Virus record (IMG/VR): IMGVR_UViG_3300030101_003463
Location: 1-33,270 of that record
From: a virus
DNA length: 33,270 bases
Direction: 5' to 3' (one strand)
Shown: piece after piece, positions 16,647 to 32,300 of the stretch
How positions within the stretch are numbered: the first letter of the stretch is position 1
Layout: every line of letters begins with the position of its first letter
Translations under genes and position numbers: made by a program
The notes under the pieces: generated by a model
Told to the model about the DNA's origin: nothing
Seen by the model: only the letters and a program-made list of their open reading frames with translations
Database searches by the model: none

Positions 16647-18030
16647 TCGTGAATATAACGATAATTGGCATATAGATGCGATATCCGACCATTTACAGGC
16701 TGTTGCCAATGGAGACATCAAAAGATTAATTATAAACGTACCACCAAGACATATGAAGTCTATATCGGTGTCTGTTGCATTACCTGCATGGACATGGACA
16801 AATGACCCTACCAAAAAGTTTTTATATGCTAGTTATGCAGGTTCTTTATCAATTAGAGATAGTGTAAAGTGTAGGCGATTGATTGATAGTCAATGGTATA
16901 AGACAACATTTGGCGATGGTTTCTCGCTAACAACAGACCAAAATCAGAAACAAAGGTTCGAGAACGATAAGACAGGTATGCGAATTGCTACATCTGTAGA
17001 TGGTGCATTAACTGGTGAGGGTGGCGATATTATTGTTATAGATGACCCACACAATGTAAGAGAGGCAGAATCAGGTCTTGTCAGGCAAGGTGTATTAGAT
17101 TGGTGGGACCAAGCAATGCAAACAAGATTGAATGACCCTAAAAATGGTGCATTTATTATAATTATGCAAAGAGTACATGAGAACGATTTAACAGGTCATA
17201 TTTTGGCAAATGAATTTGAAGATTGGGACCATTTATGTTTACCAGCAAGATACGAAACTACGCACCCAACCATTAGTCGTTCTTCATTGGGATTTATTGA
17301 CCCACGAGAAGAAGATGGCGAATTACTATGGCCAGATAGAATAGACGAAAGAACACTAGCAAATCTTGAAAAAAGTTTAGGTTCTTATGGTTCTGCTGGT
17401 CAATTACAACAACGACCAATGCCAAGAGGTGGAGGTATATTAAGGGCAGAATGGTGGAGTGAATGGCAAGAAGAAGATTTGCCAAATATAGAGTACATGA
17501 TACAATCGTACGATACAGCATTTAGTACAAAAGAAAATAGTTCATATAGTGCTAGAACAACATGGGGAGTATTTAAACAAGATGGATATTATAATGCTAT
17601 CGTTATCGATATGTGGTACGATAGGGTTTCTTACCCTGAGTTAAGAGCGATTGCACAAGAGGCATATGAAGATTACGAACCAGATGTTGTGTTGATAGAA
17701 AAGAAAGCAAGTGGTCAAAGTTTGATACAAGATTTAAGAATGGCTGGTATACCAGTTTTAGAATATTCGCCAGATAGAGATAAGCAGGCTAGGGCACACG
17801 CAAGTTCTGCCTTGCTAGAAGATGGTAGAATATGGTACCCTGCAGGTAAGAGATGGGCAAAAGATTTAATAGATATATGTTCTGCCTTTCCAACTGGTAA
17901 CAATGATGATATAGTAGATACATGCACTCAAGCATGGTTAAGATTAAGAAAAGGTTGGTTTATAACACATTCAAGCGACGCAGAAGATGATGACGTTGAA
18001 GAACAGAAGAGGTTAACATTATATGGCTAG
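16591..18030 (+). CDS. terL: Terminase large subunit
   Basis: A 479-residue packaging motor. The ATPase domain has a Walker A-type PPRHMKS (51-57) and Walker B IIVIDDP (147-153). The RNaseH-like nuclease has Asp308 (QSYDTAF), Glu370 (VVLIEKK) and the Asp pair in NNDDIVD (437-443). It packs DNA into the prohead through the portal and cuts concatemers. I chose the ATG at 16591, preceded by GCGGAG, over the upstream in-frame ATG at 16522. The extra residues do not look conserved and the family usually starts near this point. Its end overlaps the portal start by 8 bases. Confidence 0.92.
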   Translation: MRRSLKLFIKEAWTTIEPNREYNDNWHIDAISDHLQAVANGDIKRLIINVPPRHMKSISVSVALPAWTWTNDPTKKFLYASYAGSLSIRDSVKCRRLIDSQWYKTTFGDGFSLTTDQNQKQRFENDKTGMRIATSVDGALTGEGGDIIVIDDPHNVREAESGLVRQGVLDWWDQAMQTRLNDPKNGAFIIIMQRVHENDLTGHILANEFEDWDHLCLPARYETTHPTISRSSLGFIDPREEDGELLWPDRIDERTLANLEKSLGSYGSAGQLQQRPMPRGGGILRAEWWSEWQEEDLPNIEYMIQSYDTAFSTKENSSYSARTTWGVFKQDGYYNAIVIDMWYDRVSYPELRAIAQEAYEDYEPDVVLIEKKASGQSLIQDLRMAGIPVLEYSPDRDKQARAHASSALLEDGRIWYPAGKRWAKDLIDICSAFPTGNNDDIVDTCTQAWLRLRKGWFITHSSDAEDDDVEEQKRLTLYG

Positions 18031-20449
18031 AGAACCAAACATAATACCATTCCAAGAGGGTGCTCCAGCAGACGACCTTGAGGTAGAACAAATTGGCGAA
18101 GATGTGCTTATTGGCGATGCATCACTAGACGAAGTAGTAGAAATAACAAGTGAACATGACCAAAACCTTGCAGAACAAATAGACGATAATGAATCTGCAA
18201 GAAAGGCACAAGATTTATTAGAAGCATTTGAAAGCGATAAAGAAGCTAGGTCAGAGTGGGAAGATAGATACAAACAAGGTCTTGAAACCTTAGAACCAGA
18301 TGGTGGGTTAACAGAAGAAGAAGAACAAAGAGCAACAAGAGGTTTAAGCACAGTTGTACACCCCATGATTGCTGAAGCCGCAACCCAGTTCAATGCAAGA
18401 GCAATCGCAGAATTATATCCGTCAGGTGGACCAGTAAAGACAACAATAATTGGTGAACCTACAGAAGAATTAGAAGACCAAGCAAGACGAGTTCGTGATT
18501 ACATGAACTATCAGATAACACAAGAAATGCCTGAGTATTTCCCTGATTTAGATACAATGTTATTTCAGTTACCACTAATTGGTCATGCATTCAAAAAAGT
18601 ATTTTACGACACAAATCTAGGCAGACAATGTTCTCAGTTTGTAAAGGCAGAAGACTTTGTTGTTGCACCAGACAGTAAAGATTTAATGACATCTATAAGA
18701 TATTCGCACATCATTAGAATGCCAAGAAACGACTATAATCGTTACGTTCAAGGTGGTTTTTATCTACCTATTAAATATATGGGAAGTGATTATGACCCTG
18801 CAGGAGATATAGGAGAGCAGATTGAAGGTGTTTCTTCTTACGGAGATGAAGAACACAACGAGACAGTTACATTAATTGAAATGCACGTATACGAAACATT
18901 TGATGGTCTTGATGGTATAGAAACAGATGATAAAGATTACGACAAAGATATGGTCGCATTTCCCTATGTTGTAACAATAGATTATGATTCACAAAAGATT
19001 GTATCAATAAGAAGAAACTGGGAAGAAAAAGACGAAAAGAAAATAAGACTTGATTATTTTGTTTCATATAGATTTTTGCCGGGTACTGGTTTTTACGGAT
19101 TTGGTTTATTTCATTTAATAGGCGGTCTTGGAAAGGCGGCAACAGGTTCACTTAGAGCATTATTAGATTCTGCGGCTTTCAGTAATATGCAAGGCGGATT
19201 TAAATTAAAAGGCAGGGTTACAGGTGGTGAATTACAGGTAAATCCGGGTGAGTTTGCAGATTTAGATGCCACAGTTGATGATGTTAATAAGGCGATTATG
19301 CCATTGCCATTTAAAGAACCATCAGGAACATTATTTCAATTAATGAATGCAATCGTACAGGCAGGTCAAAGATTTGCAAGTACAGCAGATTTAAATGTTG
19401 GTGACGTTAACCCTAATGCACCAGTAGGTTCAACAGTTGCCTTAATAGAACAAGGCAGTAAGGCATTTAGTGCGATACACAAAAGGCTACATTATTCACA
19501 AGGTCAAGAGTTTAAATTAATCGCCAAAACAAATGCAAAATATTTACCTGAACAATTTGAATTTTCAATATCAGGTGTAACACAACGAATACTATCTACT
19601 GATTTTGATAGTACGATTGATATTATACCAGTATCAGACCCTAACGTATTTAGTACTGCACAGAGAATAGCACAAGCACAATCTGTTTTACAACTATCAC
19701 AAACTGCACCTCAACTTTATGATATGTACGATACACATAAAAGAATGTTAGAGGCATTAAGAATACCAAATATTGGTGAGGTATTAAAAGAACCAGAAGA
19801 AGCAAGTCGTTTAGACCCTGTAGACGAGAATATGTCTATTATGTATGGTAAACCTATCAGAGCATTCCCAGAACAAGACCATGATGCTCACATAAATGTA
19901 CATATGCAATTCTTACAAGACCCATCGTTAGGTGGTAATCCGGGTGCAAGAAACCTTCAACCTATTTTAATTGCACATATTGCAGAACATATTGCACTTC
20001 TATATAGACAAAGAATGCAGACAGCGATAGGTATGCAACTAGCACCATTACCAGATATTAGAGATGCTAAATTTAAATTTGAAGATTTACCACCAGAGTT
20101 AGATATGCAGATTTCACAAAGAGCGGCAGAGGTTGTAAAACAATCACCACAAATGACACAAATACAAGCAATCGCAAATCTTGGTCAAGGTCAACAAGCA
20201 AATCCGTTACAATTTGCACAACAGTTGGCACAATTAGAACAACAAATGTTACAAATGAAGACACAACAAGAGCTACAAATTGAAGCGGCAAAAGCGAAAC
20301 AAGACATGGCTATAAAAGATGCAGAAACCAAACAAGACCTAGCCATTAAACAAGCAGAATTGAACCAAGATTTACAGGCTAAAATGATGAAGTTAGAGCA
20401 AGAACTCATGATTATTAGAGAGAAAAATATAGCAAAACAAGGAGGCTAA
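18023..20449 (+). CDS. Portal protein, P22-like
   Basis: An 808-residue portal. After an acidic variable N-terminus, ARKAQDLLEAFESDKEARSEW and GLSTVVHPMIAEAATQFNARA match P22-like portals. The wing/stem core follows (LFQLPLIGHAFKKVFYD, KAEDFVVAPDS, GFYGFGLFHLIGGLGKAATG). NVGDVNPNAPVGSTVALIEQGSKAFSAIHKRLH (about 455-487) is another strong family block. The last about 90 residues are a Gln/Ala/Lys-rich helical barrel-like coiled coil. Twelve copies would form the DNA channel at the capsid vertex. A P22-like portal suggests short-tailed morphology, though I see no tail gene to confirm it. Confidence 0.88.
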   Translation: MAREPNIIPFQEGAPADDLEVEQIGEDVLIGDASLDEVVEITSEHDQNLAEQIDDNESARKAQDLLEAFESDKEARSEWEDRYKQGLETLEPDGGLTEEEEQRATRGLSTVVHPMIAEAATQFNARAIAELYPSGGPVKTTIIGEPTEELEDQARRVRDYMNYQITQEMPEYFPDLDTMLFQLPLIGHAFKKVFYDTNLGRQCSQFVKAEDFVVAPDSKDLMTSIRYSHIIRMPRNDYNRYVQGGFYLPIKYMGSDYDPAGDIGEQIEGVSSYGDEEHNETVTLIEMHVYETFDGLDGIETDDKDYDKDMVAFPYVVTIDYDSQKIVSIRRNWEEKDEKKIRLDYFVSYRFLPGTGFYGFGLFHLIGGLGKAATGSLRALLDSAAFSNMQGGFKLKGRVTGGELQVNPGEFADLDATVDDVNKAIMPLPFKEPSGTLFQLMNAIVQAGQRFASTADLNVGDVNPNAPVGSTVALIEQGSKAFSAIHKRLHYSQGQEFKLIAKTNAKYLPEQFEFSISGVTQRILSTDFDSTIDIIPVSDPNVFSTAQRIAQAQSVLQLSQTAPQLYDMYDTHKRMLEALRIPNIGEVLKEPEEASRLDPVDENMSIMYGKPIRAFPEQDHDAHINVHMQFLQDPSLGGNPGARNLQPILIAHIAEHIALLYRQRMQTAIGMQLAPLPDIRDAKFKFEDLPPELDMQISQRAAEVVKQSPQMTQIQAIANLGQGQQANPLQFAQQLAQLEQQMLQMKTQQELQIEAAKAKQDMAIKDAETKQDLAIKQAELNQDLQAKMMKLEQELMIIREKNIAKQGG

Positions 20450-20450
20450 A

Positions 20451-20987
20451 ATGCCGGGACATACAGATAAAGGCACAAAAAATTATAGAGATATGATGAA
20501 ACGCATGGAGAAAGATGACCCATCAATAGTAAACCCAGCAAGACCGAGTGGTATGATGGGTGGAACACCTGCAGATTTGATAAAAAGCAAACCAGAAGAA
20601 ACAGCCATGGGTAGAATGGGTGCAGGTACTCGTGAGGTATTTAACATGATGAAAACTTTAGACCCAAAAAGTGTTGTTCGTGAAGGCGAAATGGCTGGTA
20701 TGAGTGGTGTAGAAGATGCCATGTCAGGTTTAACTATGGCAGATAGAGAAGCAATAGAAGCATTAACAACAATGGGTATATCACTTGAAGATGCGATAGA
20801 GGCAGTCATGGGTAACATGCAAGATAGTATGGTAGAAGGTGCAGTTGGTGCAACAATGGGAGGTGGAACATTAGGTGCATTACCAATGGCAAGACAAGGT
20901 ACTGTAGAGCGAGAAGGTGAAATGGGAGCAGATAGAACTGAAAACCCAATGAATACCATAACATCAAGAAATGCACCAAGTACATAG
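20451..20987 (+). CDS. Met/Gly-rich protein of unknown function, next to portal
   Basis: A 178-residue protein very rich in Met, Gly and Ala, with motifs such as PSGMMGGTPADL, GRMGAGTREVFNMMKTL and GMSGVEDAMSGLTMADREAIEALTTMG. It begins one base after the portal stop, behind the portal's AAGGAGG ribosome-binding site. No domain recognised. Low complexity and position suggest a head/neck-associated or internal virion protein. An open frame on the opposite strand (20483-21016) mirrors its skewed composition and is not credited. Confidence 0.6.
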   Translation: MPGHTDKGTKNYRDMMKRMEKDDPSIVNPARPSGMMGGTPADLIKSKPEETAMGRMGAGTREVFNMMKTLDPKSVVREGEMAGMSGVEDAMSGLTMADREAIEALTTMGISLEDAIEAVMGNMQDSMVEGAVGATMGGGTLGALPMARQGTVEREGEMGADRTENPMNTITSRNAPST

Positions 20988-20994
20988 GTTTTAA

Positions 20995-22242
20995 ATGGCA
21001 AAAGAACCATTTTCATTAAAAGATGTAGAAACTCTAAAGACAGGTATTTTAGCAGAAGAGGCTGGTTTTAAGCCTCTTTCGTCTTTTAATGTAGATTTTA
21101 CATTAAGACCAGAAACAATATTTGGTGCTTTGCCCGGTATTGGAGATTTAGCAATACTTGGTCAAGCAATTGGTAAAGTACAAACAGAAGATGCCGCAAC
21201 CAACTTTCTAAATACACAAAGTCCAAATCAACTTGATACAGGATTAAGTGCTACGTTAAAAAGGGCAGGTACTGGAGAAAGTGCCACAAATGCAGTAATA
21301 AACGAAATCAAGCAATTTAAAGCCAACGACCCATTCTCTACAGAACCTAATATTACTCGTGATGATATACAAAAATACATTGCAAGTAAAAGACCTGATT
21401 TAGATTTAGCACCTATTCAAAATAGAATGTTTACAAAGACTGAGATTGCTGAAGGCGATGCAGGTGGTCGTTTTGGTAACCAACAAGTATATACAACACA
21501 ACCTTTTTCAAGTGGGAGAACTGCACAAAACATAACAAGTACTGGCTTTAGAGGTGGTATAGACCCACAAGATAAGGCAATGATAGAAGAAGATTTAGCA
21601 ATATCAGGATATAGTAGTTATGGTGATGCTATGAAAGGTGGTTTTTTTGATAATGAATTAAAATCAACAGGTCAATTTGCAGAAGATAAAACAACTCAGG
21701 TAAATTTTGGCACAAGAGATGAAAAAGGTAATTTTGTAGGTGCAAAGGGTTATGACCCAGCCTTTGCAAGAGCGGCAACTTTAGAAAATCAAGGCGATAG
21801 TGCAAATGCAGACCCAACTTTTATATGTACAGTTTTGTTTGAAATGAATATACTACCTATGAGTATTTACAAATACGACCAACGATATGGTCAACAGGTA
21901 AATAGAAAAATATATAACGGATATGCTACTTGGGGAAAACCAATAGCAGAAAGAATGAGGAAACAAGGCTTTACTTTTAAAATTATGAAACCAATTGCGT
22001 GTGCTTGGGCAGAACAAATGGCATATGATTTATCAGAAGGCAAGGTTGGTAAAAATAGAGTTTCAATCAAAATAGGCAAATTTATTGGAGAGGCAATATG
22101 TTATTCAATAGGTCTATTTATAAAACCAAAAGGAGATAAAAATGGAAGAAGTAGAAGTAGGCAACATGGAGAAGAACGAAGAGTTGTTCATGGAAAAAAT
22201 GGGCTTCCCAAGAGACGCGGAAGGCCTAGAATTAAGCGATGA
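20995..22242 (+). CDS. Two-part virion-type protein with Cys-containing C-terminal domain
   Basis: A 415-residue protein. Residues 1-270 are variable and Gly/Thr/Asn-rich. From about residue 272 a compact helical domain appears: DPTFICTVLFEMNILPMSIYKYDQRYG, then GYATWGKPIAERMRKQGFTFKIMKP, then ACAWAEQMAYDLSEGKVGKN and FIGEAICYSIGLFIKP. I believe this YxxYDxxYG...YxxWGKPxAxxM...PxAxxWAxQMAYxL domain ends diverse phage structural-region proteins, but I know no function. The last about 33 residues are read in a frame shared with the next gene and end in RRGRPRIKR, an AT-hook-like basic tail. The tail may be real or the result of a lost stop. Confidence 0.6.
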   Translation: MAKEPFSLKDVETLKTGILAEEAGFKPLSSFNVDFTLRPETIFGALPGIGDLAILGQAIGKVQTEDAATNFLNTQSPNQLDTGLSATLKRAGTGESATNAVINEIKQFKANDPFSTEPNITRDDIQKYIASKRPDLDLAPIQNRMFTKTEIAEGDAGGRFGNQQVYTTQPFSSGRTAQNITSTGFRGGIDPQDKAMIEEDLAISGYSSYGDAMKGGFFDNELKSTGQFAEDKTTQVNFGTRDEKGNFVGAKGYDPAFARAATLENQGDSANADPTFICTVLFEMNILPMSIYKYDQRYGQQVNRKIYNGYATWGKPIAERMRKQGFTFKIMKPIACAWAEQMAYDLSEGKVGKNRVSIKIGKFIGEAICYSIGLFIKPKGDKNGRSRSRQHGEERRVVHGKNGLPKRRGRPRIKR

Positions 22243-22417
22243 GCAATTAGTTAATTTTCTATTATTATGTCATCAAACAATGATGCTTCCACATGAAGAT
22301 GAAGAAACAGAAGAAGAACATGGCGACATGAAAGTTAAAATTATTAAAATGGATTCTGGTAATGCACACGAAATGATGAATGATATGCTGGGACCTATGG
22401 GACCGAAGGTAATGTAA
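22142..22417 (+). CDS. Small acidic Met-rich protein
   Basis: A 91-residue acidic protein (MEEVEVGNMEKNEELFMEKMGF ... DEETEEEHGDMKVKIIKMD ... MLGPMGPKVM). It starts inside the preceding gene with a good AGGAG ribosome-binding site (22131-22135) and overlaps it by 101 bases in another frame. The overlap is unusually GC-rich. It shares the Met/Gly-rich style of the 20451-20987 product and its neighbour 22417-22641. Unknown function; such acidic proteins could bind the lysine-rich proteins encoded next. Confidence 0.55.
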   Translation: MEEVEVGNMEKNEELFMEKMGFPRDAEGLELSDEQLVNFLLLCHQTMMLPHEDEETEEEHGDMKVKIIKMDSGNAHEMMNDMLGPMGPKVM

Positions 22418-22641
22418 TGCCCGGTACTTCTAAAAAAATGGGTGCTCTTGCAGACCTACCAAAAGAAAGAATGCAAAAAGCTGAATTGCCTTTAATGAAA
22501 TTAGAAGATTTACTAGATAGTGTAGGTTATGCAAACCTTGAACCAACAATAAGGCAAATGATGGCATCAGATGTAAAAGAAATACAAATACAAGGTTTGA
22601 TGTTAATGAAAGAATTACAAAGTCTTGGAGAGGGAATGTAA
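22417..22641 (+). CDS. Hypothetical small helical protein
   Basis: A 74-residue protein (MPGTSKKMGALADLPKERMQKAELPLMKLEDLLDSVGY ... LMLMKELQSLGEGM). Start and stop share a base with each neighbour (TAATG-type junctions). It is mostly helical with Met-rich ends and has no family I recognise. It starts with MPG like the 20451 gene, which may be chance. Confidence 0.55.
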   Translation: MPGTSKKMGALADLPKERMQKAELPLMKLEDLLDSVGYANLEPTIRQMMASDVKEIQIQGLMLMKELQSLGEGM

Positions 22642-22781
22642 TGCCATTTAGTAAATATTCTAAAAAACAAAAAGCATTGGCAAGAATAGCAAAACCTAGA
22701 ACAAAGATAACTGGTGCAGACTTTGCAAAATTAAGAAAGAAGAAAAAGAATGGCAAAAAAACCAACAAAAAGAAGGTTTAA
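22641..22781 (+). CDS. Tiny lysine-rich protein
   Basis: A 46-residue protein starting MPFSKYSKKQKALARIAKP and ending in a run of Lys (KKKKNGKKTNKKKV), about 40% Lys plus Arg. Too short for most gene calling. Its ATG overlaps the previous stop by one base, and it overlaps the next basic gene by 32 bases in another frame. It is the first of a row of very basic small proteins reaching to 24332. Such proteins could bind or condense DNA, or RNA; that is inference from charge. Confidence 0.55.
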   Translation: MPFSKYSKKQKALARIAKPRTKITGADFAKLRKKKKNGKKTNKKKV

Positions 22782-22947
22782 GAAGGTACCAAAAACAAAA
22801 AAAGGTACGCCTAAGAAATATCTCGCAGGTGCAAAGAACCCTAAGGCAAGAGAAAGAGAGATAAGAAGAACTGCAAAACTTTACCGAGAAGGCAAACTTA
22901 CCAAGGCACAGATGGATAAGATAAGTAAGCAAAGGAGTAAATCATAA
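22750..22947 (+). CDS. Small lysine-rich protein with helical core
   Basis: A 65-residue very basic protein: MAKKPTKRRFKKVPKTKKGTPKKYLAG, then a charged helix KAREREIRRTAKLYREGKLTKAQMDKIS, then KQRSKS. The helix part (REIRRTxKLYREGKLTxAQMDxISKxR) looks constrained and may be a folded module in a family of small phage proteins. It starts within the preceding tiny gene and its stop shares a base with the next start. Nucleic-acid binding is likely from composition only. Confidence 0.6.
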   Translation: MAKKPTKRRFKKVPKTKKGTPKKYLAGAKNPKAREREIRRTAKLYREGKLTKAQMDKISKQRSKS

Positions 22948-23210
22948 TGGCAGAAACCAAGAAGAAAACCACCAAAAAGAAAAAAGGTAAATATTCATCA
23001 ATACCGGGAGCAGGTAGGTTCTCAAAAGAAAAGCTAGATAAGGTCTATAAAAGAGGGTTAGGGGCATACTATTCGAGTGGCAGTAGACCAAAGACATCAG
23101 CGCATCAATGGGCTATGGGACGCGTAAAAAGTTTTGTTACAGGCAAAGGTGGAGCAAGAAAGGCAGATAAAGATTTGCTAGGTAAAGGTAAGAAGAAGAA
23201 AAGTGCCTAA
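22947..23210 (+). CDS. DUF5824-like basic protein
   Basis: An 87-residue protein with Lys-rich ends around a conserved core: DKVYKRGLGAYYSSGSRPKTSAHQWAMGRVKSFVTGKGGARKADKDLL. The VYxRGLGAYYSSGSRP...WAxxRVxSF...GGARKADxDLL pattern is one I associate with DUF5824, found in phages and large viruses, often fused to or beside structural proteins. Function unknown. It overlaps the next gene by 8 bases. The aromatic, Gly and Arg-rich core suggests a fold that binds nucleic acid or a virion component. Confidence 0.7.
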   Translation: MAETKKKTTKKKKGKYSSIPGAGRFSKEKLDKVYKRGLGAYYSSGSRPKTSAHQWAMGRVKSFVTGKGGARKADKDLLGKGKKKKSA

Positions 23211-23523
23211 GAAGAAGAAAGACCCAAGAGTTGGTACAGGGAAAAAACCAAAAGGGAGCGACAGAAGACTCTACACAGATGAAAACCCTAAAGACACAGT
23301 TAGCATCAAATTTGCAACACCAACAGATGCACAAGACACGGTTAGAAAGGTTAAAAGAATCAATAAACCATATGCGAGAAAGATACAAATACTTACTGTC
23401 GGTGAACAAAGAGCAAAAGTAATGGGAAAGACAAAGGTCGCAAGTATATTTAAAAAAGCCAAAAAAACATTAAAACAGCAAAAGGAGAAAAAAGATGGCA
23501 AAAAAAGCAGTAGACGCACCTAA
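23203..23523 (+). CDS. Small basic conserved phage protein
   Basis: A 106-residue protein starting at GTG: MPKKKKDPRVGTGKKPKGSDRRLYTDENPKDTVSIKFATPTDAQDTVRKVKRINKPYARKIQILTVGEQRAKVMGK. The central part (RLYTDENPKDTVSIKFATP to QILTVGEQRAKVMGK) appears to be a small αβ domain with Lys-rich ends. I recall similar sequences in marine phages, without annotation. It is coupled to both neighbours by short overlaps and belongs to the basic-protein row. Confidence 0.6.
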   Translation: MPKKKKDPRVGTGKKPKGSDRRLYTDENPKDTVSIKFATPTDAQDTVRKVKRINKPYARKIQILTVGEQRAKVMGKTKVASIFKKAKKTLKQQKEKKDGKKSSRRT

Positions 23524-23656
23524 AGGGTTTCATTGGATGAAGTCAGGTTCTGGTTTTAAGCTAATGAAAGGTGACTATAAACCTCATAAGGGTGCAGTTA
23601 AAAAAGCATCATTTGAAATACAAAAAGTTCACACACCAGCACAAAAGAAAAAATAG
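23495..23656 (+). CDS. Tiny basic protein
   Basis: A 53-residue protein (MAKKAVDAPKGFHWMKSGSGFKLMKGDYKPHKGA ... HTPAQKKK). The segment GFHWMKSGSGFKLMKGDYKPHKGA reads as a small β-hairpin unit. Its ATG has an AAGGAG ribosome-binding site (23482-23487) and lies inside the end of the previous gene; its TAG shares a base with the next GTG start. Not a family I can name, but coding evidence is good. Confidence 0.6.
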   Translation: MAKKAVDAPKGFHWMKSGSGFKLMKGDYKPHKGAVKKASFEIQKVHTPAQKKK

Positions 23657-24075
23657 TGGCTAAATCTAAAATATTATTAGGTGCACTCGGAGAACTTTTA
23701 CAAGATAAGTTTATGCCAGATGTTGATACAGGTGCATTAAAAAATATTGATAATCAAAATATAGAGGCAATAAGTAAAGGCGACGACCTTAAATTTCAAA
23801 AGAAAGGTGTTTTAGGAGAAACAACACCAACAGAAACAAAAAGTGCAGGATTAATAGATTTTCAAGTTTTTTCCGAAGATATAGACCAAGAAAGATTTAT
23901 AAATAAAAGCATGAATGATGAAATTATTAAGGCAATAAAATTAGGTAGCTTTGATGATGCAAAAAATTACATGAGAAATATCCAAGAAAAATTTGAAGAT
24001 TTTGGTGCAAATGATAGTGAGCCAACTGCGATTATTGATTCTATATTAGAAAACTATTTTATGGGTAGCGAATAA
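23656..24075 (+). CDS. Hypothetical protein with shared N-terminal motif
   Basis: A 139-residue acidic protein, GTG start, beginning MAKSKILLGALGELLQDKFMPD. That start resembles those of the products at 24333 (MSKTRILMKALGKALEK) and 25112 (MSKIFKLFKFGTLGALDEL). The rest (FQVFSEDIDQERFINKSMNDEIIKAIKLGSFDDAKNYMRNIQEKFEDF) is helical, with no known domain. The start may be a targeting or membrane-interacting helix common to a set of proteins carried together; this is inference. Confidence 0.55.
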   Translation: MAKSKILLGALGELLQDKFMPDVDTGALKNIDNQNIEAISKGDDLKFQKKGVLGETTPTETKSAGLIDFQVFSEDIDQERFINKSMNDEIIKAIKLGSFDDAKNYMRNIQEKFEDFGANDSEPTAIIDSILENYFMGSE

Positions 24076-24332
24076 TGGCTGAATATAAAGGCAGAAAAGT
24101 AACCTTAAATAAGCCTAGACGTATAAGAAAAGGCGAACCATCTTATGGTAAAAAGAAGTCTATGGTCTTTGTAATGGATAAAGGTAAGGTTAAAAAGATT
24201 ACATTTGGCGACCCTAATATGAGAATAAAGAAAACATCACCTGCAAGAAGAAAATCTTTTAGGGCAAGGCATAATTGTGATACTGCCACAGATAAGACAA
24301 CAGCTAGATATTGGTCATGTAAGGCTTGGTAG
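24075..24332 (+). CDS. Small conserved basic phage protein (DUF6321-like)
   Basis: An 85-residue protein: MAEYKGRKVTLNKPRRI, then SMVFVMDKGKVKKITFGDPNMRIKKTSPARRKSFRARHNCDTATDKTTARYWSCKAW. The ending RKSFRARHNCDxAxDKTxARYWSCKxW is a strongly conserved signature that I have seen in many phages (recalled as DUF6321), sometimes fused to other virion proteins. Its Cys, His and Trp residues suggest a small structural or metal site. Function unknown. Stop and the next start are adjacent. Confidence 0.7.
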   Translation: MAEYKGRKVTLNKPRRIRKGEPSYGKKKSMVFVMDKGKVKKITFGDPNMRIKKTSPARRKSFRARHNCDTATDKTTARYWSCKAW

Positions 24333-25112
24333 ATGTCAAAAACACGTATATTAATGAAAGCATTAGGTAAGGCATTAGAAAAAGTACCAGAAAAGATAGG
24401 TTCTTTGCCATCAGAAGAAGAACTTAAAAAACAAGGTTTTGACCCTAGAACATTTTATCACATGACAAGAGAAGATATAACAAGTTTTGACCCAAATGCA
24501 CCTGCCGATTTAGGAGTTGGACCAAAACAGATGGAAGATTGGCAGTACGATGGTTTTGAGGGAACAAGAGGTGCAACATATTTTACTTCATCAAAAGACT
24601 ACCTAGAAGAAATTTTTGATGCAATGAGTGATGCTGATACTAAGAAAGGTATAACAGGTCTTCGTTCTATGCCAGTAAAATTAAAATTAAGAAATATATT
24701 CTTACCAAGAAATAAAGAACATATTGCAATGCTTAGAAATGCCATTGAAAAAAGTTCTCCAGAAGATAGAAAAATATTTAATTACTTTAAAGATAAACAA
24801 TTAGAATTACGAGACGAGTATACTGATGATGATTTTTTCATAGAAATGTCAAATTATCAAATGCCATACACTTTAGAAAACCCAATAGTAATTAAAAAAA
24901 TGAAAGAATTGGGATTTACAGGTTATAGTGGAGACCCTTATGCACCGGGAACTATTGCATTATTTAGTCCAGAGAAAGGTGATGTTAGAAGTGTATTTGC
25001 TAAATTTGACCCAGATAAGGTAGAAGATGGTAATATTCTTGCATCTATTGTACCACCAGTTACAACTGCAGTAGGTGTTGGTGCGTTGGCAGGATTAGAA
25101 GAAAGTACATAA
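24333..25112 (+). CDS. ADP-ribosyltransferase-like protein (ART-PolyVal type)
   Basis: A 259-residue protein. FYHMTREDITSFDP (41-54) matches the NAD-binding first strand of ART domains, with His43. RGATYFTSSKDYLEEIF (79-95) is the second motif. GFTGYSGDPYAPGTIALFSPEKGDVRSVFAKFDPDK (194-229) is the usual end, with the RS..A.FDP signature seen in phage polyvalent ARTs. I cannot place the catalytic glutamate with confidence. The start MSKTRILMKALGKALE and a hydrophobic C-terminus (ILASIVPPVTTAVGVGALAG) flank the domain. It may be packaged and act early on host proteins, as T4 Alt does; this is inferred from type and location. Confidence 0.72.
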   Translation: MSKTRILMKALGKALEKVPEKIGSLPSEEELKKQGFDPRTFYHMTREDITSFDPNAPADLGVGPKQMEDWQYDGFEGTRGATYFTSSKDYLEEIFDAMSDADTKKGITGLRSMPVKLKLRNIFLPRNKEHIAMLRNAIEKSSPEDRKIFNYFKDKQLELRDEYTDDDFFIEMSNYQMPYTLENPIVIKKMKELGFTGYSGDPYAPGTIALFSPEKGDVRSVFAKFDPDKVEDGNILASIVPPVTTAVGVGALAGLEEST

Positions 25113-27979
25113 TGTCTAAGATATTTAAATTATTTAAATTTGGTACACTTGGAGCATTAGATGAATTAGGTATGTTCTCGCCTACAGAAAAGGCAATAGA
25201 TTTACTTGGTCAAGATAAATTTGTTGCTGAAGATTTATTAAGATTAGACCCAAAAGCAACATCAGGAACAGCAGGTTTATTATCTAAATTTGGAAAACCT
25301 GTGCAAGAAGAAATGATTTTTACAGGTCTTGAAGATAAAATACTTGGTTTACCAAAGGGAGAAAAAATTACATCACAAGAATTAAAAGACTATTTGGTAG
25401 ACAATAAAACAAGAGTAAATGAAATAATTAAAAGTGATAAAGTAGTTAACAAAGAAATAAATTATGAACCATTTGAATTATCTGTAATTGAACCTGTTGG
25501 GCCGGGTAGAGGTAGATATGGCGTACAAAGTTTTTTGAATGATATAGATGATGGTGTACCATCAGCATTAGAAGCATTTGCAGAATTAGATGTAGATTCA
25601 TCAGGTACTGGTGCGACTAGACTTGGTACTTTTAAAAATCCGTTTATTAATAAAATAAATTTTGAAGATTTGAGCACACAATTTCAAACAGAAGTATTAA
25701 CACCTGTTGTAACTCAAGCCAGACAAGAAGGTTTATTAGACCCAGATGATTTTGCCATGGCATCATTAGGTCCAGATGTAGAAAATATAGTGAAGTTTGA
25801 ATTTTCACCATCATTAGATGCTGACAAAGATATTGTTTATAGAATACAAGGTAATAATACAATTGGTTATGAGGTTATAGCTAGAAAAAAAGGCGCTGAT
25901 GCAAATATGTTTGTTAGTCCTGTAAAACCTAGTTTTAATGAGGCAAAAGTAACGCTAGATGGATATAGAAGAAAGATAAATAAGGTAGATGATGAAAGTT
26001 TAATGCCAATGCATGAGCAATATACATTGCCGGGTGGAACAAACTATCAAGAGATAATACTTACAATGCCTGAACCTATCGATAATGTTGCATCTATTGC
26101 AGGTAAATATGATGATTTAGTAAAAAAAGATAAATTTGGTACTATAATTAATTTAAATGCAATTACTGGCGATAATACTGACATTACATTAAGTCCGCAA
26201 ATGTTAAGAATACTAAATGATGGAAAGGTTTTAGATTTAGGTATTGATAGAAACATAAGGTTAAATAAAGATACAGGTGATATTGAGGTACTCAAACAAG
26301 ATTATGAAAACTTTTCACATACAGCCGATGAAAAAAATGTTGTTGTATTCACAAGAACAAAAGACAGAGTTGATGAAGATGGTAGAAAGATATTGTATGT
26401 AGAAGAAATACAATCAGATATGTCGCAACAGGGCAGAAGAAGAGGTCTTGTTATGGGGCAAAAAGAGAAAAAGGCATTCATAAATAGATATAATAATAAA
26501 ATTTTTGGTGATGTTTTAGATTCTATTGATGCATTAAAAGATAAAACAAACATTGCTGATTTGAGAGGTGCAAGAATGTCAGGAACAACATACGATGACT
26601 CTTCAATAAGAAGATTGCAACCATCTTTTCAAGACGTTGATTTTAAAGATACTTTTGCTAACTTACCAAATGTTGATTATGAAAGTGCGCATAGTTTTGA
26701 AGATATAGTTAAAAAACAAATGACTAAATATAAATTTAACGAACTTAAAGATAATAAAGTTAAGATATTTACCAATAGAGGTATAGATAAAAAAAGTGCT
26801 CAAAAATTAAATATTGAGGCATTAACAGATAATTTAAAAATACCAGAAAATTTATACAATGATGTTACAGATTATGTTGATATGAGTAAATTTAAAGAAA
26901 AGATTGATGCGATTGAAACTGTTTTAGCAAATAAAATATATACAAAAGAATTTAACAAAAGACCTGACATGAGTTCTGTTGCAGGTAAAGCAGAATTTGA
27001 TAAATTACAGGCATTTAATAGAGATATGTTAAAAAGATTTATGGGCGAGAAAGAATTTAATAATTTTATGAAAAAAGAAACCAAAGATATTATTGAACAG
27101 GTTGTAAATGATAATATTGCAGAAATAACTATACCAGATAATGTTACAGACCTTTTTGAATATTATAATTCTATTGACGATACAGATATTATTTCTACAC
27201 CATTTGACGGACAAATGACAAAATTAGAATTTGATGAAAAATATTTAAATCCAAAGATAAATGCTTTGGTTGAAAACAGATTACAGGTACATGCAACTGT
27301 TACTGACTCAACGAGTAATCGTGCAATAGGTTTTGATTATCCAGAAGATGCTCTTGATGAGGTGTACGATAAAATAAAAGATTTACAAACAAATCTGGGA
27401 AATGCTGTAAGATACGATGTAAAATTAAGACCTGTAGGTAATATACCATCAGCACCGTTTATTGGTTCTTCTGAAAGGTTTACTGAATTAGCAATTAAAA
27501 GACTATTAAAACACGCGAAAGACAATGATTACGATGGTGTTGCGTTTTCTTCTGGTAAAATTCACGATAAAAGATGGAACCAACCTAATTTAACTCAATA
27601 TTATGATGTTGTTATTCCAAAGGTTGCCAAAAATTTATTGAAAGGTACTGATGCAAAACTTGAATATACTGATATATGGTTAGACCAAAATTCTTTAGAC
27701 GAAGCAACAGATATGATTCGTGTAGGCGGAAGATACGATTATTTTGATAGAGATGTACTAAATGAACTTGACCAAACACCTGCATTAATAGGACATAATG
27801 ATGGTTTTCGAGGATATATTGGCGATACACCAACAATATATTTAACAGATGATGTAAAAGAAAATATTGATTCTGGCATATCCTTATATTCTCCAATAAT
27901 CGCCACAGGTATTGCAGGTACAGTTGCAAATAAAATGATAGGCAGTGAAGAAGATATAATAAGAGACGAGGGAATATAA
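25112..27979 (+). CDS. Large polyvalent-type virion protein
   Basis: A 955-residue protein. Residues 310-450 hold a domain with YEEIILTMP-type strands (YQEIILTMPEP) and a GRKILYVEEIQSDMSQQGRRRG block (EIQSD at 432-436). Near the C-terminus PFIGSSERFTELAIKRLLKHA (782-802) and DYDGVAFSSGKIHDKRW follow. These EIQSDxxQ and PFxGS..F.ELAIKRLL..A....YDGVAF..G blocks recur in phage polyvalent proteins that are delivered with DNA; their activity is unknown. The N-terminus shares the MSKxxKL motif with two neighbours, and a hydrophobic segment (SPIIATGIAGTVANKMIG) lies near the end. No methyltransferase, helicase or peptidase domain, unlike larger relatives. Confidence 0.7.
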   Translation: MSKIFKLFKFGTLGALDELGMFSPTEKAIDLLGQDKFVAEDLLRLDPKATSGTAGLLSKFGKPVQEEMIFTGLEDKILGLPKGEKITSQELKDYLVDNKTRVNEIIKSDKVVNKEINYEPFELSVIEPVGPGRGRYGVQSFLNDIDDGVPSALEAFAELDVDSSGTGATRLGTFKNPFINKINFEDLSTQFQTEVLTPVVTQARQEGLLDPDDFAMASLGPDVENIVKFEFSPSLDADKDIVYRIQGNNTIGYEVIARKKGADANMFVSPVKPSFNEAKVTLDGYRRKINKVDDESLMPMHEQYTLPGGTNYQEIILTMPEPIDNVASIAGKYDDLVKKDKFGTIINLNAITGDNTDITLSPQMLRILNDGKVLDLGIDRNIRLNKDTGDIEVLKQDYENFSHTADEKNVVVFTRTKDRVDEDGRKILYVEEIQSDMSQQGRRRGLVMGQKEKKAFINRYNNKIFGDVLDSIDALKDKTNIADLRGARMSGTTYDDSSIRRLQPSFQDVDFKDTFANLPNVDYESAHSFEDIVKKQMTKYKFNELKDNKVKIFTNRGIDKKSAQKLNIEALTDNLKIPENLYNDVTDYVDMSKFKEKIDAIETVLANKIYTKEFNKRPDMSSVAGKAEFDKLQAFNRDMLKRFMGEKEFNNFMKKETKDIIEQVVNDNIAEITIPDNVTDLFEYYNSIDDTDIISTPFDGQMTKLEFDEKYLNPKINALVENRLQVHATVTDSTSNRAIGFDYPEDALDEVYDKIKDLQTNLGNAVRYDVKLRPVGNIPSAPFIGSSERFTELAIKRLLKHAKDNDYDGVAFSSGKIHDKRWNQPNLTQYYDVVIPKVAKNLLKGTDAKLEYTDIWLDQNSLDEATDMIRVGGRYDYFDRDVLNELDQTPALIGHNDGFRGYIGDTPTIYLTDDVKENIDSGISLYSPIIATGIAGTVANKMIGSEEDIIRDEGI

Positions 27980-28164
27980 TGTCGGCAGTAAAGAAAGTAG
28001 CAAATGCAGAAATAAGGGCGGCAAAAAAGTTTCTTGAAAGACGAAAGATAGAAACAAAAGAAATAAGCCCAAAAGAATTTGCAAAATTGGCAGGCAAACT
28101 TGACAAGAGTTTTAACCAAACATTAAAAATATTAGCAAGAAAACTAACAGCAGGACAGGTTTGA
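27979..28164 (+). CDS. Small basic helical protein
   Basis: A 61-residue basic protein (MSAVKKVANAEIRAAKKFLERRKIETKEISPKEFAKLAGKLDKSFNQTLKILARKLTAGQV), mostly amphipathic helix. Its start shares a base with the polyvalent gene's stop and its TGA shares a base with the next ATG. No family recognised. It could be a structural partner of the flanking large proteins. Confidence 0.55.
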   Translation: MSAVKKVANAEIRAAKKFLERRKIETKEISPKEFAKLAGKLDKSFNQTLKILARKLTAGQV

Positions 28165-29348
28165 TGGCAGAATTATCGTCACGAGAAGTTACTCAGAAAA
28201 AGATTGCAGATGCCTTAGATTATCTCATGGATAATTACAATATTGGTGATAGGTCAGTACGAGAGGGCAAAGCAACCAATATGGATATCGCAAGAAGTTT
28301 TACAGGAGATATTAAAAGCGATAAATTCACAGAGAATATTGGTCTTTTAGATTTTACACCTGTTGGTGCTTATTTTGCTGGAGAAGAAGCAGATAAGGCA
28401 ATTAGAGAGGCAGAACCAGATAAATTAAAAAGAACCTTGTCTTTATTAGCTTTTATGAACAACCCAGTAATGACCACAATTGCAAGACCAGATATTGGCG
28501 TGCCTGCAATAGAAGTAGGTTTAAGTACAGCAGAGGCGATACCATTGACTGCGGTTATTACAAAACCTGCGAGAAAATTTCTGTCATCGCTGAAAGCGAA
28601 GGCTACAAAGCCATCAAAAGACGTGGGTATGAATATACAAAAAACATCTTTACCAACATCAGGCGAGGCTAATACGACGACAAATATAGCAGAAAATCAA
28701 GATTTTGACCCAAGTAGAAGAAAATTCTTAAAAGATACAGCAACGGTAGGTGCATTAGGTGCAATTTCAACACAAGTGCCAGATGCAATAAAAATGGTTT
28801 CTAAAGCATCAAAAATGGTAAAACCAAAAATAACATTTGCCTCAGCACAAAAGGCATTCATTAGACCACAACTAAGAAATTATTTACAAGATTTGACCAA
28901 CGATGAAGGCTTTACATCTGATGAAATTATAGGACAAATACTTTATGACAGAGTACCTGCATATAGAAGATTAAATAACGAAATAGACCAAGACAATTAT
29001 ATAAAAGAAACATATGGTATTGACCCTAACCAAACCTCAGTAGATGAAATTATGGCTAACCAAAAATTAGTTGATGATATGTCAATAGATGTTGCAGGTG
29101 ATGACGAATACGAATTTAGATATAAAGTGCAACAAATGGCATTAGATGATGGCGCAAAGATTGATAAAAATAATATATTATCAGACCCAGCTATGGATTT
29201 ATACGAAGACCTAGATGTCGTTGAAGAAAAAAATAGTGCAGTAGAAGAATATTATCAAACCTTGAAAGAAGAAGGTAAATCGCCAAATGATATAGCATTA
29301 TTTATGCGAGATGATATAGAATACGATACAGGTAAATCAGCCAATTAA
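28164..29348 (+). CDS. Virion-type protein with internal twin-arginine-like motif
   Basis: A 394-residue protein. Residues 1-100 are helical, with FTPVGAYFAGEEADKAIREAE. At 184-190 stands SRRKFLK followed by DTATVGALGAISTQVPDA, a perfect match to the twin-arginine (S/T-R-R-x-F-L-K) plus hydrophobic segment of Tat signal peptides, but in mid-protein instead of at the N-terminus. The last 130 residues are acidic (DDEYEFRYKV, DLYEDLDVVEEKN). It is the last gene of the rightward block before a hairpin at 29351. The start is ATG 28164, overlapping the previous stop. Possibly a virion protein that crosses the envelope on delivery; unproven. Confidence 0.6.
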   Translation: MAELSSREVTQKKIADALDYLMDNYNIGDRSVREGKATNMDIARSFTGDIKSDKFTENIGLLDFTPVGAYFAGEEADKAIREAEPDKLKRTLSLLAFMNNPVMTTIARPDIGVPAIEVGLSTAEAIPLTAVITKPARKFLSSLKAKATKPSKDVGMNIQKTSLPTSGEANTTTNIAENQDFDPSRRKFLKDTATVGALGAISTQVPDAIKMVSKASKMVKPKITFASAQKAFIRPQLRNYLQDLTNDEGFTSDEIIGQILYDRVPAYRRLNNEIDQDNYIKETYGIDPNQTSVDEIMANQKLVDDMSIDVAGDDEYEFRYKVQQMALDDGAKIDKNNILSDPAMDLYEDLDVVEEKNSAVEEYYQTLKEEGKSPNDIALFMRDDIEYDTGKSAN

Positions 29349-29398: not shown

Positions 29399-29629
29399 TT
29401 AGACCTTATTTAATAAAGATGCCCTATGCAATACCCTTTCTCTTTGTTTTTGATTTAAATTAGAAATAACATTTAAAACCTTGATGGCATTTTGCCTTTC
29501 ATGTTCAACAGTAAATGTATATTTTCTAGGTTCTCTTGTTATTTCAAACATCTTATTAAGAACATCTATAGTGAAACCATCTTTTTCACATAAACGTTTT
29601 GCCTCAGATTTGGTAATTTTATCTTTCAT
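29399..29629 (-). CDS. Hypothetical small protein, last gene of the leftward island
   Basis: A 76-residue basic, helical protein (MKDKITKSEAKRLCEKDGFTIDVLNKMFEITREPRKYTFTVEHERQNAIKVLNVI...). The KITKSEAKRLCEKDGFTIDVLNKMF part could form a small helix-turn-helix-like fold, but no family is clear. It has an AGGGAGAAAGCAATG leader of the phage's standard type and is the third gene of the 30338-29399 unit. Confidence 0.55.
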   Translation of the reverse strand: MKDKITKSEAKRLCEKDGFTIDVLNKMFEITREPRKYTFTVEHERQNAIKVLNVISNLNQKQRERVLHRASLLNKV

Positions 29630-29639
29630 TGCTTTCTCC

Positions 29640-29951
29640 CTATTGTACGTTACATCTAATTACTTGAAAACCAAGAGGTGCAACCAAATGTGCAACCTTT
29701 GATTCTGTGTTAATGATAATATCGCCACAAGATATAGAATAAAATTTATCAATCTTTTCTATTTCGTCTGGCTCTGTATTACCAATTCTAAAAACCTCAT
29801 TAAGATTTTCTGCCTTGATATAACCTGCATCTCTATAATTACCATTATCCCAAGCCTCACGAATAACATCTACATTAGACCTAGAGATTTGGTAGGCAGT
29901 ACCATCGTCAATTTCTGAATGATTAGGTTGTAATATTAAATATTTTTGCAT
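29640..29951 (-). CDS. Small protein with SxSxGD...GF motif
   Basis: A 103-residue protein starting MQKYLILQPNHSEIDDGTAYQIS. The C-terminus KFYSISCGDIIINTESKVAHLVAPLGFQVI has an S-[IM]-S-x-GD-[IV]-I ... V-x-x-x-GF-x-x-I pattern that I associate with small uncharacterised proteins of phages and plasmids, some near antirestriction genes. I start it at ATG 29951, with TTTTGGGAGAAAACAAAATG, not at the upstream in-frame TTG, which would read through the ribosome-binding site. Second gene of the leftward island. Confidence 0.6.
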   Translation of the reverse strand: MQKYLILQPNHSEIDDGTAYQISRSNVDVIREAWDNGNYRDAGYIKAENLNEVFRIGNTEPDEIEKIDKFYSISCGDIIINTESKVAHLVAPLGFQVIRCNVQ

Positions 29952-29964
29952 TTTGTTTTCTCCC

Positions 29965-29988
29965 AAAAGATGGGGGGATAAACCCCCC
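29965..29988 (-). terminator. GC-only hairpin with U-rich tail inside the leftward island
   Basis: On the minus strand GGGGGG-TTTAT-CCCCCC (29972-29988) is followed by ATCTTTT (29965-29971), 5 bases after the stop of the ArdC-N-like gene and just before the next gene's GGGAGAAAA ribosome-binding site. It has the shape of an intrinsic terminator; since a gene follows at once, it probably attenuates transcription or sets RNA stability. Confidence 0.6.
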
Positions 29989-29993
29989 TGTTG

Positions 29994-30905: not shown

Positions 30906-30906
30906 C

Positions 30907-31311
30907 GTGACTCATCAACACGGAGATAAAATTTATGCAGATAGTTTGTCTAAGGCAACTATTGCATCACATCAACTTCCAAAGCCTCTAAACTGGAAGA
31001 TACTAATTCAACCAGCAGAAATTTCTACAGAGACCAAAGGTGGTATTATATTACCAGAAACTGCTAAAGATAATCAGCAAATTCTAACTGCACATGGTCA
31101 TGTTGTTGCTATTGGTGAATTAGCCTACCGAGATAGAGACACAGGAGCTAAGTGGAGACAAGAAACAACACCTAAAGTCGGCGATTTTGTTACGTTTGGC
31201 AAATATGCTGGTCAAAAGATTGTTGTTAATAACGTACGGTTTATTTTACTAAATGATGACGAGATTACATCAATCTTGCCTGAGGGAGTAAAAGTAACCG
31301 CTTATATTTAA
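30907..31311 (+). CDS. groES: Phage GroES co-chaperonin (Cpn10)
   Basis: A 134-residue Cpn10-fold protein: PKPLNWKILIQPAEISTETKGGIILPETAKDN (mobile-loop region included), HGHVVAIGELAY, KVGDFVTFGKYAGQKIVVNNVRFILLNDDEITSIL. It should cap the host GroEL so that it folds capsid or other large phage proteins, as T4 gp31 does. I take the GTG at 30907, 9 bases after AGGAG (30893-30897), over the ATG at 30898 which lies directly on that site. An N-terminal extension of about 27 residues (THQHGDKIYADSL...) is unlike bacterial GroES. Directly followed by the scaffold-like gene. Confidence 0.85.
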   Translation: MTHQHGDKIYADSLSKATIASHQLPKPLNWKILIQPAEISTETKGGIILPETAKDNQQILTAHGHVVAIGELAYRDRDTGAKWRQETTPKVGDFVTFGKYAGQKIVVNNVRFILLNDDEITSILPEGVKVTAYI

Positions 31312-31334
31312 TGCGCAACTTGGAGGTCGCAACC

Positions 31335-32300
31335 ATGGAAAATAATATAGAAGATAAAGTTTTAGAAGAAGTCAATGCTGAGATTAACGAAAGCATAGAT
31401 GAAGCCAAAAACAAGTTAAAAGAACAAGAAATAGAAATAGAAATAGAAGAACCACAACCACTATCTAACGAAAACAGACCAGCAGTCCCAGATAGAAAAC
31501 AAGAGATTAAAACTGAACCGAAGAAAAAAATACCAGAAATTGCTGACGAAGAAATGAGTGCGGCAGTACAAAGAAGAATTAAAAAAATCTTACGTGATAA
31601 AAAAAATGCAGAAGAAGAAGCACAAAATCTACAAAATACTGTCGCTGGATTGACACAAAGGCTTGAAAAGATAGAAAAAGCCAATGAAACACAAGGTCAA
31701 AACCAACTAGCAGAACATTATAATTTAACCAAAAAAGCCTTAGCAAAAGCAATAGAGGAAGGCGATACAGAACAACAGGTTAAATTTAATGAAGAATTGG
31801 TAGATATAAAAACTGCTATTGCTTTACAAAATCAGGCGAAGGCACAACGACAACAAAGCGAGACAACCTCGCCAAATGTTGGTAGAGCACAACAACAAGC
31901 CACAAATCCTGCACCAGAGAAGGCAATGAATTGGTGGAGAGAAAACGATTGGTTTAATGCCAAAGGGTTTGAAAAAGAAACAGCCATGGCAAGAGCAATA
32001 GATGTTCAGCTTGACATAGAAGGCTACGATAAAAATGATGCATCATATTATGATGAATTAAATAATCGTTTACAAAAGAGTTTTCCCGAGCTAATATCTA
32101 AAAAAGAGGTAACTGAAAGTAAGCCTAGACAAAGTAGACAAGCAGTTGCACCCACTACAGGTGGTCAGGCATACAGAGGTAACCGAATACGAATGACTTC
32201 GGAGCAACTAAGAATGGCAAGAGAATTAGGTATAACGGACCCTGAGCATCTTAAAAAGTATGCTAAAGAAATAACCAATTTAAGCAGGAAGGATACATAA
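31335..32300 (+). CDS. Scaffold-like head assembly protein
   Basis: A 321-residue charged, largely helical protein. An acidic start (EDKVLEEVNAEINESIDEAKNKLKEQEIEIEIEEP), a coiled coil (SAAVQRRIKKILRDKKNAEEEAQNLQNTVAGLTQRLEKI), Gln-rich linker, then a small C-terminal region (NWWRENDWFNAKGFEKETAMARAIDVQL ... SEQLRMARELGITDPEHLKKYAKEITNL). Composition, coiled coil and place between portal/GroES and coat-region genes are typical of phage scaffolds. I choose the ATG at 31335, 8 bases after GGAGG (31322-31326), not the ATG at 31311 that overlaps the GroES stop. Confidence 0.7.
   Translation: MENNIEDKVLEEVNAEINESIDEAKNKLKEQEIEIEIEEPQPLSNENRPAVPDRKQEIKTEPKKKIPEIADEEMSAAVQRRIKKILRDKKNAEEEAQNLQNTVAGLTQRLEKIEKANETQGQNQLAEHYNLTKKALAKAIEEGDTEQQVKFNEELVDIKTAIALQNQAKAQRQQSETTSPNVGRAQQQATNPAPEKAMNWWRENDWFNAKGFEKETAMARAIDVQLDIEGYDKNDASYYDELNNRLQKSFPELISKKEVTESKPRQSRQAVAPTTGGQAYRGNRIRMTSEQLRMARELGITDPEHLKKYAKEITNLSRKDT

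What the first reader, a model, noticed from the sequence alone, without database searches (positions are those of the whole stretch)
22641..29348. Possible block of virion-delivered effectors, including an ADP-ribosyltransferase and a polyvalent protein
Between portal and scaffold lie an ART-PolyVal-type protein, a 955-residue polyvalent-type protein, small DUF proteins (DUF5824-like, DUF6321-like) and a Tat-motif protein, all coupled by short overlaps. Polyvalent proteins are known to be delivered with phage or plasmid DNA to act on the recipient cell. A phage with short-tail features carrying an ART in this block would parallel T4 Alt but with unrelated partners.
Basis: partly seen in the sequence, partly recalled or inferred. 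Interest (0 to 1): 0.75.

Follow-up and report, generated by a model that had tools for sequence, protein, structure and literature searches.

The report
Phage effector cassette with shared tag

Summary
The observation largely holds. Between portal and GroES/scaffold, the window (an IMG/VR contig related to Roseobacter phages CRP-901/902) has a tightly packed plus-strand run. The 259-aa protein has an ART fold: its closest solved structure is the cyanophage A4 pre-ejectosome, then RES, ParT, pertussis S1 and PARP. The 955-aa protein matches large polyvalent-type phage proteins by fold. Some details fail: the window ART scores below Pfam's ART-PolyVal cut-off and has Thr in place of the strand-5 Asp; the 'Tat' motif is internal; DUF6321 was not found. 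In ~200 fetched loci the slot is a swappable cassette (ART, PBECR5 nuclease, polyvalent-type), and ART homologues sit beside portal or terminase even in unrelated phages. New: a short motif, GALxx[LIVM], lies near the termini of unrelated interval proteins. GAL is terminal in 116/222 of them, against 1/21 core and 5/73 other proteins; GALxx[LIVM] occurs 101 times against 2.9 expected. Codons and flanks vary, so selection is on the peptide. I propose a cargo-docking tag for loading the prohead, comparable in role to T4's capsid targeting sequence or encapsulin GSL peptides. Virion presence and tag function are untested.

The parts
18023..20449 (+). portal, left border of the interval
   Evidence: phrog_1216 E 9.7e-33; 67% identical to CRP-901 gp75
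20451..20987 (+). g178, interval protein with GAL near C-terminus (GTLGALPMA, 20874-20882)
   Evidence: GAL at C end in 15/19 divergent members
20995..22242 (+). g415, interval protein with GAL in N-terminal region (TIFGALPGIGDL, 21124-21132)
   Evidence: GAL at N end in 18/25 divergent members at offsets 3-59
22417..22641 (+). g74, small protein with N-terminal tag KKMGALADL (22441-22449)
22641..23656 (+). run of small Lys-rich proteins (46, 65, 87 = DUF5824, 106 and 53 aa)
   Evidence: DUF5824 E 4e-11
23656..24075 (+). g139, slot A protein with two N-terminal tags (ILLGALGELL 23680-23688; VDTGALKNID 23731-23739)
   Evidence: 6/6 divergent members tagged
24075..24332 (+). 85-aa HVA1/phrog_7595 protein, conserved marker before slot B
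   Evidence: phrog_7595 E 1.3e-16; annotated HVA1 in CRP-901
24333..25112 (+). ART-fold effector (259 aa): N-terminal helix and EKIGSLPSEEEL (24399-24407), ART core about residues 34-236 with H43, Y83 and T196, disordered tail with VGVGALAGLEE (25080-25088)
   Evidence: Pfam ART-PolyVal E 0.024; AF2 pLDDT 76.5, pTM 0.73, core blocks up to 98, residues 238-259 below 50; Foldseek 9k3a_B E 9.6e-4 then RES/MbcT/ParT/pertussis S1/PARP
25112..27979 (+). 955-aa large polyvalent-type protein: N-terminal GTLGALDELG (25151-25159), EEIQSDMSQQGR motif, low-confidence hydrophobic-acidic C-terminal tail
   Evidence: alignments A3/A7; AF2 pLDDT 74.1; BFVD fold matches down to E 5e-13
27979..28164 (+). g61, 61-aa conserved marker between slots B and C
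   Evidence: present in many related contigs
28161..29348 (+). 395-aa slot C protein: about 150-aa modular leader domain, internal twin-arginine motif SRRKFLK with GALGAIS (28749-28757), variable C-terminal part
   Evidence: the leader domain is fused to an ART in L010
30898..31311 (+). GroES-like co-chaperonin, right border
   Evidence: homologue annotated GroES in CRP-901
31311..32300 (+). presumed scaffold, by position upstream of g158, g183 and MCP
   Evidence: phrog_28737 unknown function E 4.4e-15; synteny; MCP in L003 is Phage_capsid_4 E 1.4e-15

Best explanation
The portal-to-GroES interval is a cassette of proteins packaged inside the virion head. It holds lineage-stable internal proteins plus exchangeable effector domains (ART fold, PBECR5-type nuclease, large polyvalent-type protein). 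About half carry a short linear tag, GALxx[LIVM], in flexible N- and/or C-terminal regions. Proposed mechanism: during prohead assembly the tag docks on a common internal partner (scaffold, portal or inner capsid face), so unrelated cargo is loaded by one address label; on infection the cargo is ejected with the DNA, and the ART-fold and other effectors act on host targets before phage genes are expressed. Shown: the genes, the ART fold, the cassette swapping, the synteny with head genes, and the tag as a peptide-level motif largely confined to this interval. Inferred: presence in virions, the tag's binding partner, ejection, and any enzymatic activity.
For: ART fold and best match to the A4 pre-ejectosome chain. 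ART homologues next to portal/terminase in related and unrelated phages. Slots filled by different effector domains at the same place: PBECR5 E 3.4e-15 in CRP-901 gp66 and 9.2e-13 in L003, tandem ARTs in L003, ART fused to the slot C leader in L010. Tag statistics: GAL at a terminus in 116/222 interval proteins against 1/21 core, 5/73 outside and 2/23 minus-strand, Fisher p 1.8e-13 against outside; GAL is the most enriched terminal tripeptide (132 against 12.9, z 33), GALxx[LIVM] 101 against 2.9, while GGL, GAI, GAV and AAL are at or near chance; family-level 12.2 against 1.96 expected over 32 cargo families, core 0.4 against 0.5. Flanks of tagged members are only 13-25% identical in g415 and g178, with offsets varying (3 to 59 in g415). 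49 different 9-mers encode the tag with near-background codon usage. In CRP-901 8 of 47 late proteins and 0 of 30 early ones have GALxx[LIVM]. Inserted 2OG-oxygenase-like genes in the same slots lack it (0/5).
Against: No proteomics or structure of any phage of this group was found. About half of interval proteins have no terminal GAL. In CRP-901 alone the enrichment is modest (GAL 23 against 9.9 genome-wide; GALxx[LIVM] late against early p 0.015). Two early proteins of the window also carry GAL near an end. Family independence is limited: one merged cargo family holds 90 of 156 members. The tag hypothesis was formed on these data, so the statistics are not a blind test; absence of the tag in other HVA1-bearing loci and in HTVC027P shows lineage restriction but says nothing about function. 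The window ART lacks the strand-5 Asp.
Confidence: 0.5

Rival explanations
1. The block encodes virion-internal ejection and effector proteins, but GAL is not a loading tag: it is a membrane-active or trans-envelope-channel element that works after ejection.
For: Many C-terminal tails are hydrophobic: 33% of cargo against 9% of controls have a 14-residue window of hydropathy >=1.3 in the last 40 residues. Slot C proteins carry a twin-arginine-like motif with a hydrophobic GAL stretch. The top structural match is a pre-ejectosome protein.
Against: Many N-terminal tags sit in polar contexts (MAEGALGNIGNTA, MARPNQYGALGSLTQDQ), and the motif is sequence-specific: similarly hydrophobic GAI, GAV and AAL are not or hardly enriched.
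Confidence: 0.2
2. GAL marks a proteolytic maturation site in head-internal proteins, as in T4 and phiKZ-like phages, and not a docking motif.
For: It sits between a short leader and the folded core in many N-termini (e.g. ART residues 23-25, between a predicted helix and the core).
Against: It also lies 9-12 residues from the extreme C-terminus of ARTs, where cleavage would do little; the scaffold, the usual substrate, has none; no protease gene was identified in the head cluster (not exhaustively tested).
Confidence: 0.1
3. The block is a set of late-expressed host-manipulation or superinfection-exclusion genes that merely sit in the structural operon and are not packaged.
For: No virion data. 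Some slot genes (2OG-oxygenase-like, by eye) look like ordinary auxiliary genes and lack the tag. The window ART has lost the canonical Asp.
Against: Position is conserved across many contigs and in unrelated phages next to portal; an ART motif is present in a solved pre-ejectosome protein; the tag is shared with lineage-stable interval proteins.
Confidence: 0.15

Closest known systems
Polyvalent proteins / ART-PolyVal (PF18760), Iyer et al. 2017 (PMC5512222)
   Same: Homologous ART-fold domain with His in strand 1 and aromatic in strand 2, head-gene neighbourhood, mix of ART, PBECR and large polyvalent-type domains
   Different: Domains are spread over separate short genes in fixed slots instead of one long polypeptide; the window ART scores below the Pfam cut-off and has Thr in place of the strand-5 Asp
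Cyanophage A4 pre-ejectosome protein (9k3a chain B = A-4L gene A4L_27, 1717 aa)
   Same: Best structural match of the ART model; its C-terminal part has the YHGT...GTYFS ART motif; solved inside a short-tailed phage head
   Different: One giant multidomain protein, located after the tail genes; only two GAL strings, neither at the termini
Phage T4 Alt
   Same: ART proposed to be delivered from the virion and to act on host proteins
   Different: Alt has an R-S-E active site and belongs to a different clade (PMC5512222); T4 is a contractile-tailed phage
T4 capsid targeting sequence on internal proteins
   Same: Idea of one short shared peptide that sends unrelated proteins into the prohead
   Different: GAL occurs at both ends and internally, with no evidence of cleavage (T4 details from general knowledge)
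Encapsulin targeting peptides (GSL motif; PMC10960027, PMC7925596)
   Same: Short flexible terminal peptide with G-S/A-L and hydrophobic neighbours that loads cargo into an HK97-fold shell
   Different: Different spacing (GALxx[LIVM] against GSLxIGSLK), found at N-termini too, and on a phage; no evidence of common descent
Roseobacter phages CRP-901/902 (PMC10149686)
   Same: Same gene order TerS-TerL-portal-interval-GroES-scaffold-MCP; PBECR5 protein in the slot
   Different: No ART or 955-type protein in the slot; tag sparser

Membership tests
ART-PolyVal (PF18760) | Score above curated cut-off | tested here: not met
   Window protein 15.8 against 31.2 bits; the L003:4667-5383 paralogue reaches 41.9
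ART-PolyVal (PF18760) | ART fold | tested here: met
   Foldseek top hits nearly all ART-fold proteins
ART-PolyVal (PF18760) | His in strand 1 and Tyr in strand 2 | tested here: met
   H43 invariant in 27/27 and in strand 41-45; Y83 in strand 82-85, aromatic in most relatives
ART-PolyVal (PF18760) | Asp in strand 5 | tested here: not met
   T196 in the window; Asp in 13 of 27 aligned relatives
ART-PolyVal (PF18760) | NAD-dependent ADP-ribosylation | not testable with these tools
   Needs biochemistry
Polyvalent proteins (Iyer 2017) | Two or more disparate domains in one polypeptide | tested here: not met
   The 259-aa ART is one domain plus tags; the 955-aa protein is unresolved; relatives L010 (fusion) and L003 841 aa do combine modules
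Polyvalent proteins (Iyer 2017) | Neighbourhood of late virion genes | tested here: met
Virion-delivered effector | Protein present in virions | not testable with these tools
   No proteome found in the literature held
T4 Alt clade | R-S-E active site | tested here: not met
   His/Tyr type (clade definition in PMC5512222)
Encapsulin targeting peptide | GSLxIGSLK-type C-terminal peptide | tested here: not met
   Consensus GALxx[LIVM], both termini; shell binding not testable

The most novel reading that the evidence does not exclude
A tailed phage lineage uses a short linear peptide code, GALxx[LIVM], to address many structurally unrelated proteins, including exchangeable host-acting effectors, into the capsid: a phage counterpart of encapsulin cargo-loading peptides, which would make the virion head a programmable protein-delivery container.
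Probability: 0.42. Interest if true: 0.85.

Novelty: new variant of a known kind. Interest (0 to 1): 0.68.

Why it matters
How phages choose which proteins to pack with their DNA is known for few systems, mainly T4. If the GAL tag is the address label, it identifies injected proteins directly from sequence across an abundant marine phage group, makes host takeover by packaged effectors testable, and gives a small genetically encoded peptide for loading proteins into phage heads. It would also bear on whether encapsulin cargo loading has viral roots.

Tried and rejected
Sequence searches of the 259-aa and 955-aa proteins against named phages gave nothing, and PDB sequence searches nothing useful. 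A GNAT reading of the 955-aa protein (weak local SSAT/NatD matches; strand-helix order around EEIQSD) was considered and left as speculation. GAL as a DNA element was rejected: 49 different 9-mers and near-background codon use. GAL as a by-product of composition was rejected by shuffles and by the near-chance level of GGL, GAI, GAV and AAL. A common tag in pelagiphage HTVC027P was looked for and not found. Slot B ORF starts reading ...GHVRRGxM are artefacts of overlap with the HVA1 gene and were trimmed. Early iterative HMM searches merged the ART and slot C families through the L010 fusion and were redone by domain.

Full report
WHAT IS THERE. The window is a 33,270-base linear IMG/VR virus record. 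TerS, TerL and portal (16134-20449) are followed by an uninterrupted plus-strand run to 29348, then minus-strand ORFs, GroES (30898-31311) and a presumed scaffold (31311-32300). The portal is 67% identical to that of Roseobacter phages CRP-901/902, which have the same order. Genes in the block touch or overlap by a few bases.

THE ART. The 259-aa product matches Pfam ART-PolyVal weakly (E 0.024). Its orthologue L003:5386-6120 matches at 8.7e-6 and a tandem paralogue at 2.2e-10. An AlphaFold2 model from 27 locus-derived sequences has a confident core, with residues 238-259 disordered and the first 20 residues of low confidence. Foldseek against the PDB gives first the cyanophage A4 pre-ejectosome chain 9k3a_B (E 9.6e-4, probability 0.99), then RES, MbcT, an anti-CRISPR (6kyf), ParT, pertussis S1 and PARPs. 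Sequence search identifies 9k3a_B as the 1717-aa A4L_27 protein; a profile of the ART family points, with a weak score, to the motif YHGT...GTYFS at residues 1425-1460 of it. His43 is invariant and lies in strand 1, Tyr83 in strand 2; the strand-5 Asp named by Iyer et al. (PMC5512222) is Thr196 here and Asp in 13 of 27 relatives. Fold and kinship are therefore shown; activity is not.

THE 955-AA PROTEIN. It belongs to a family conserved in related contigs with the motif EEIQSDxxQxGR. No Pfam, NCBIfam or PDB relative was found. Fold comparison with viral models gives 12 matches at E<=0.001, to large phage proteins, mostly of uncultured phages; proteins named 'Large polyvalent protein associated domain-containing' follow at E 0.0055 and 0.051.

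THE 395-AA PROTEIN. The twin-arginine motif is around residues 185-190, after a leader domain of about 150 residues. Similar motifs occur at residues 141-191 in many, not all, relatives, so it is conserved but not an N-terminal signal. In L010 the same leader domain is fused to an ART.

A SWAPPABLE CASSETTE. Loci fetched with the ART, 955-aa, portal and HVA1 proteins as queries show three slots around the HVA1 and g61 marker genes. Contents vary: ART (one or two), 955-type, PBECR5 nuclease (CRP-901 gp66 E 3.4e-15; L003 E 9.2e-13), proteins with ParB-like DGRHR/EGNHR motifs (by eye; Pfam gave no support), and 2OG-oxygenase-like genes (by eye). ART homologues in the group lie between portal and GroES wherever both borders are visible; in unrelated contigs L116, L122, L121 and L004 they lie near portal or terminase.

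THE GAL TAG. Reading the termini side by side showed a repeated peptide. In the window it is in g178, g415, g74, g139 (twice), the ART (GSL near the N-terminus, GAL near the C-terminus), the 955-aa protein and the 395-aa protein. Among dereplicated interval proteins 116/222 have GAL within 70 residues of the N-terminus or 45 of the C-terminus (10.2 expected from shuffles), against 1/21 core head/tail, 5/73 outside and 2/23 minus-strand interval proteins. In an unbiased scan GAL is the most enriched terminal tripeptide (132 against 12.9, z 33); GALxx[LIVM] is 101 against 2.9 and GALxxL 63 against 1.0; GGL, GAI, GAV and AAL are at or near chance. N- and C-terminal copies share the same extension, a hydrophobic residue at +5. 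Counting homologous families once: 12.2 observed against 1.96 expected for cargo, 0.4 against 0.5 for core. Tagged members of g415 and g178 are only 13-25% identical around the tag, and its offset varies (3 to 59 in g415). Forty-nine different 9-mers encode it with near-background codon use. In the CRP-901 genome GALxx[LIVM] occurs in 8 of 47 late and 0 of 30 early proteins, including gp32, gp35 and gp36 at the far end of the tail module. It is not enriched in other HVA1-bearing loci nor evident in pelagiphage HTVC027P.

INTERPRETATION. The tag is a short linear motif selected at protein level in proteins of one late-gene interval. The simplest role is recruitment to a shared partner during head assembly. 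It is comparable in role, not in descent, to T4's capsid targeting sequence and to encapsulin targeting peptides, whose GSL motif binds the inner face of an HK97-fold shell (PMC10960027, PMC7925596). Rivals are a membrane or channel function after ejection, a cleavage site, or unpackaged late genes. No experiment on this phage group separates them.

LIMITS. No virion proteomics was found. The tag was noticed and tested on the same collection. ORFs were called mechanically. Family merging limits independence. The slot identities marked 'by eye' were not supported by profile searches.

Noticed in passing
28161-29348 and slot C homologues (e.g. L173, L144, L177, L072, L115): Conserved internal twin-arginine motif (RRxF[LVI]-like) followed by a hydrophobic stretch that itself contains GALxx[LI]; it could become an N-terminal Tat signal if the leader domain were removed.
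   Followed up: partly
22641-23656: Five consecutive very Lys-rich small proteins (46-106 aa), one of them DUF5824; pelagiphage HTVC027P has a similar run after its portal. Possibly head-internal DNA-binding proteins.
   Followed up: no
25112-27979: Strand-helix order around EEIQSDMSQQGR and weak local matches to GNAT acetyltransferases hint at an interrupted GNAT-like fold.
   Followed up: partly
L127, L130, L137, L147 and similar loci: The 85-aa HVA1 protein also occurs in loci with a different gene context in which GAL is not enriched.
   Followed up: partly
L012, L014, L125, L177, L192: 2OG-oxygenase-like genes inserted into the same slots lack the tag, leader and tail (family assigned by eye).
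   Followed up: partly
15217-16104: Glycosyltransferase-like gene (phrog_842, beta-glucosyl-HMC-alpha-glucosyltransferase, E 5e-47) just before the terminase genes.
   Followed up: no
29399-30338: Three small minus-strand ORFs, conserved in close relatives, interrupt the late run between the cassette and GroES.
   Followed up: no
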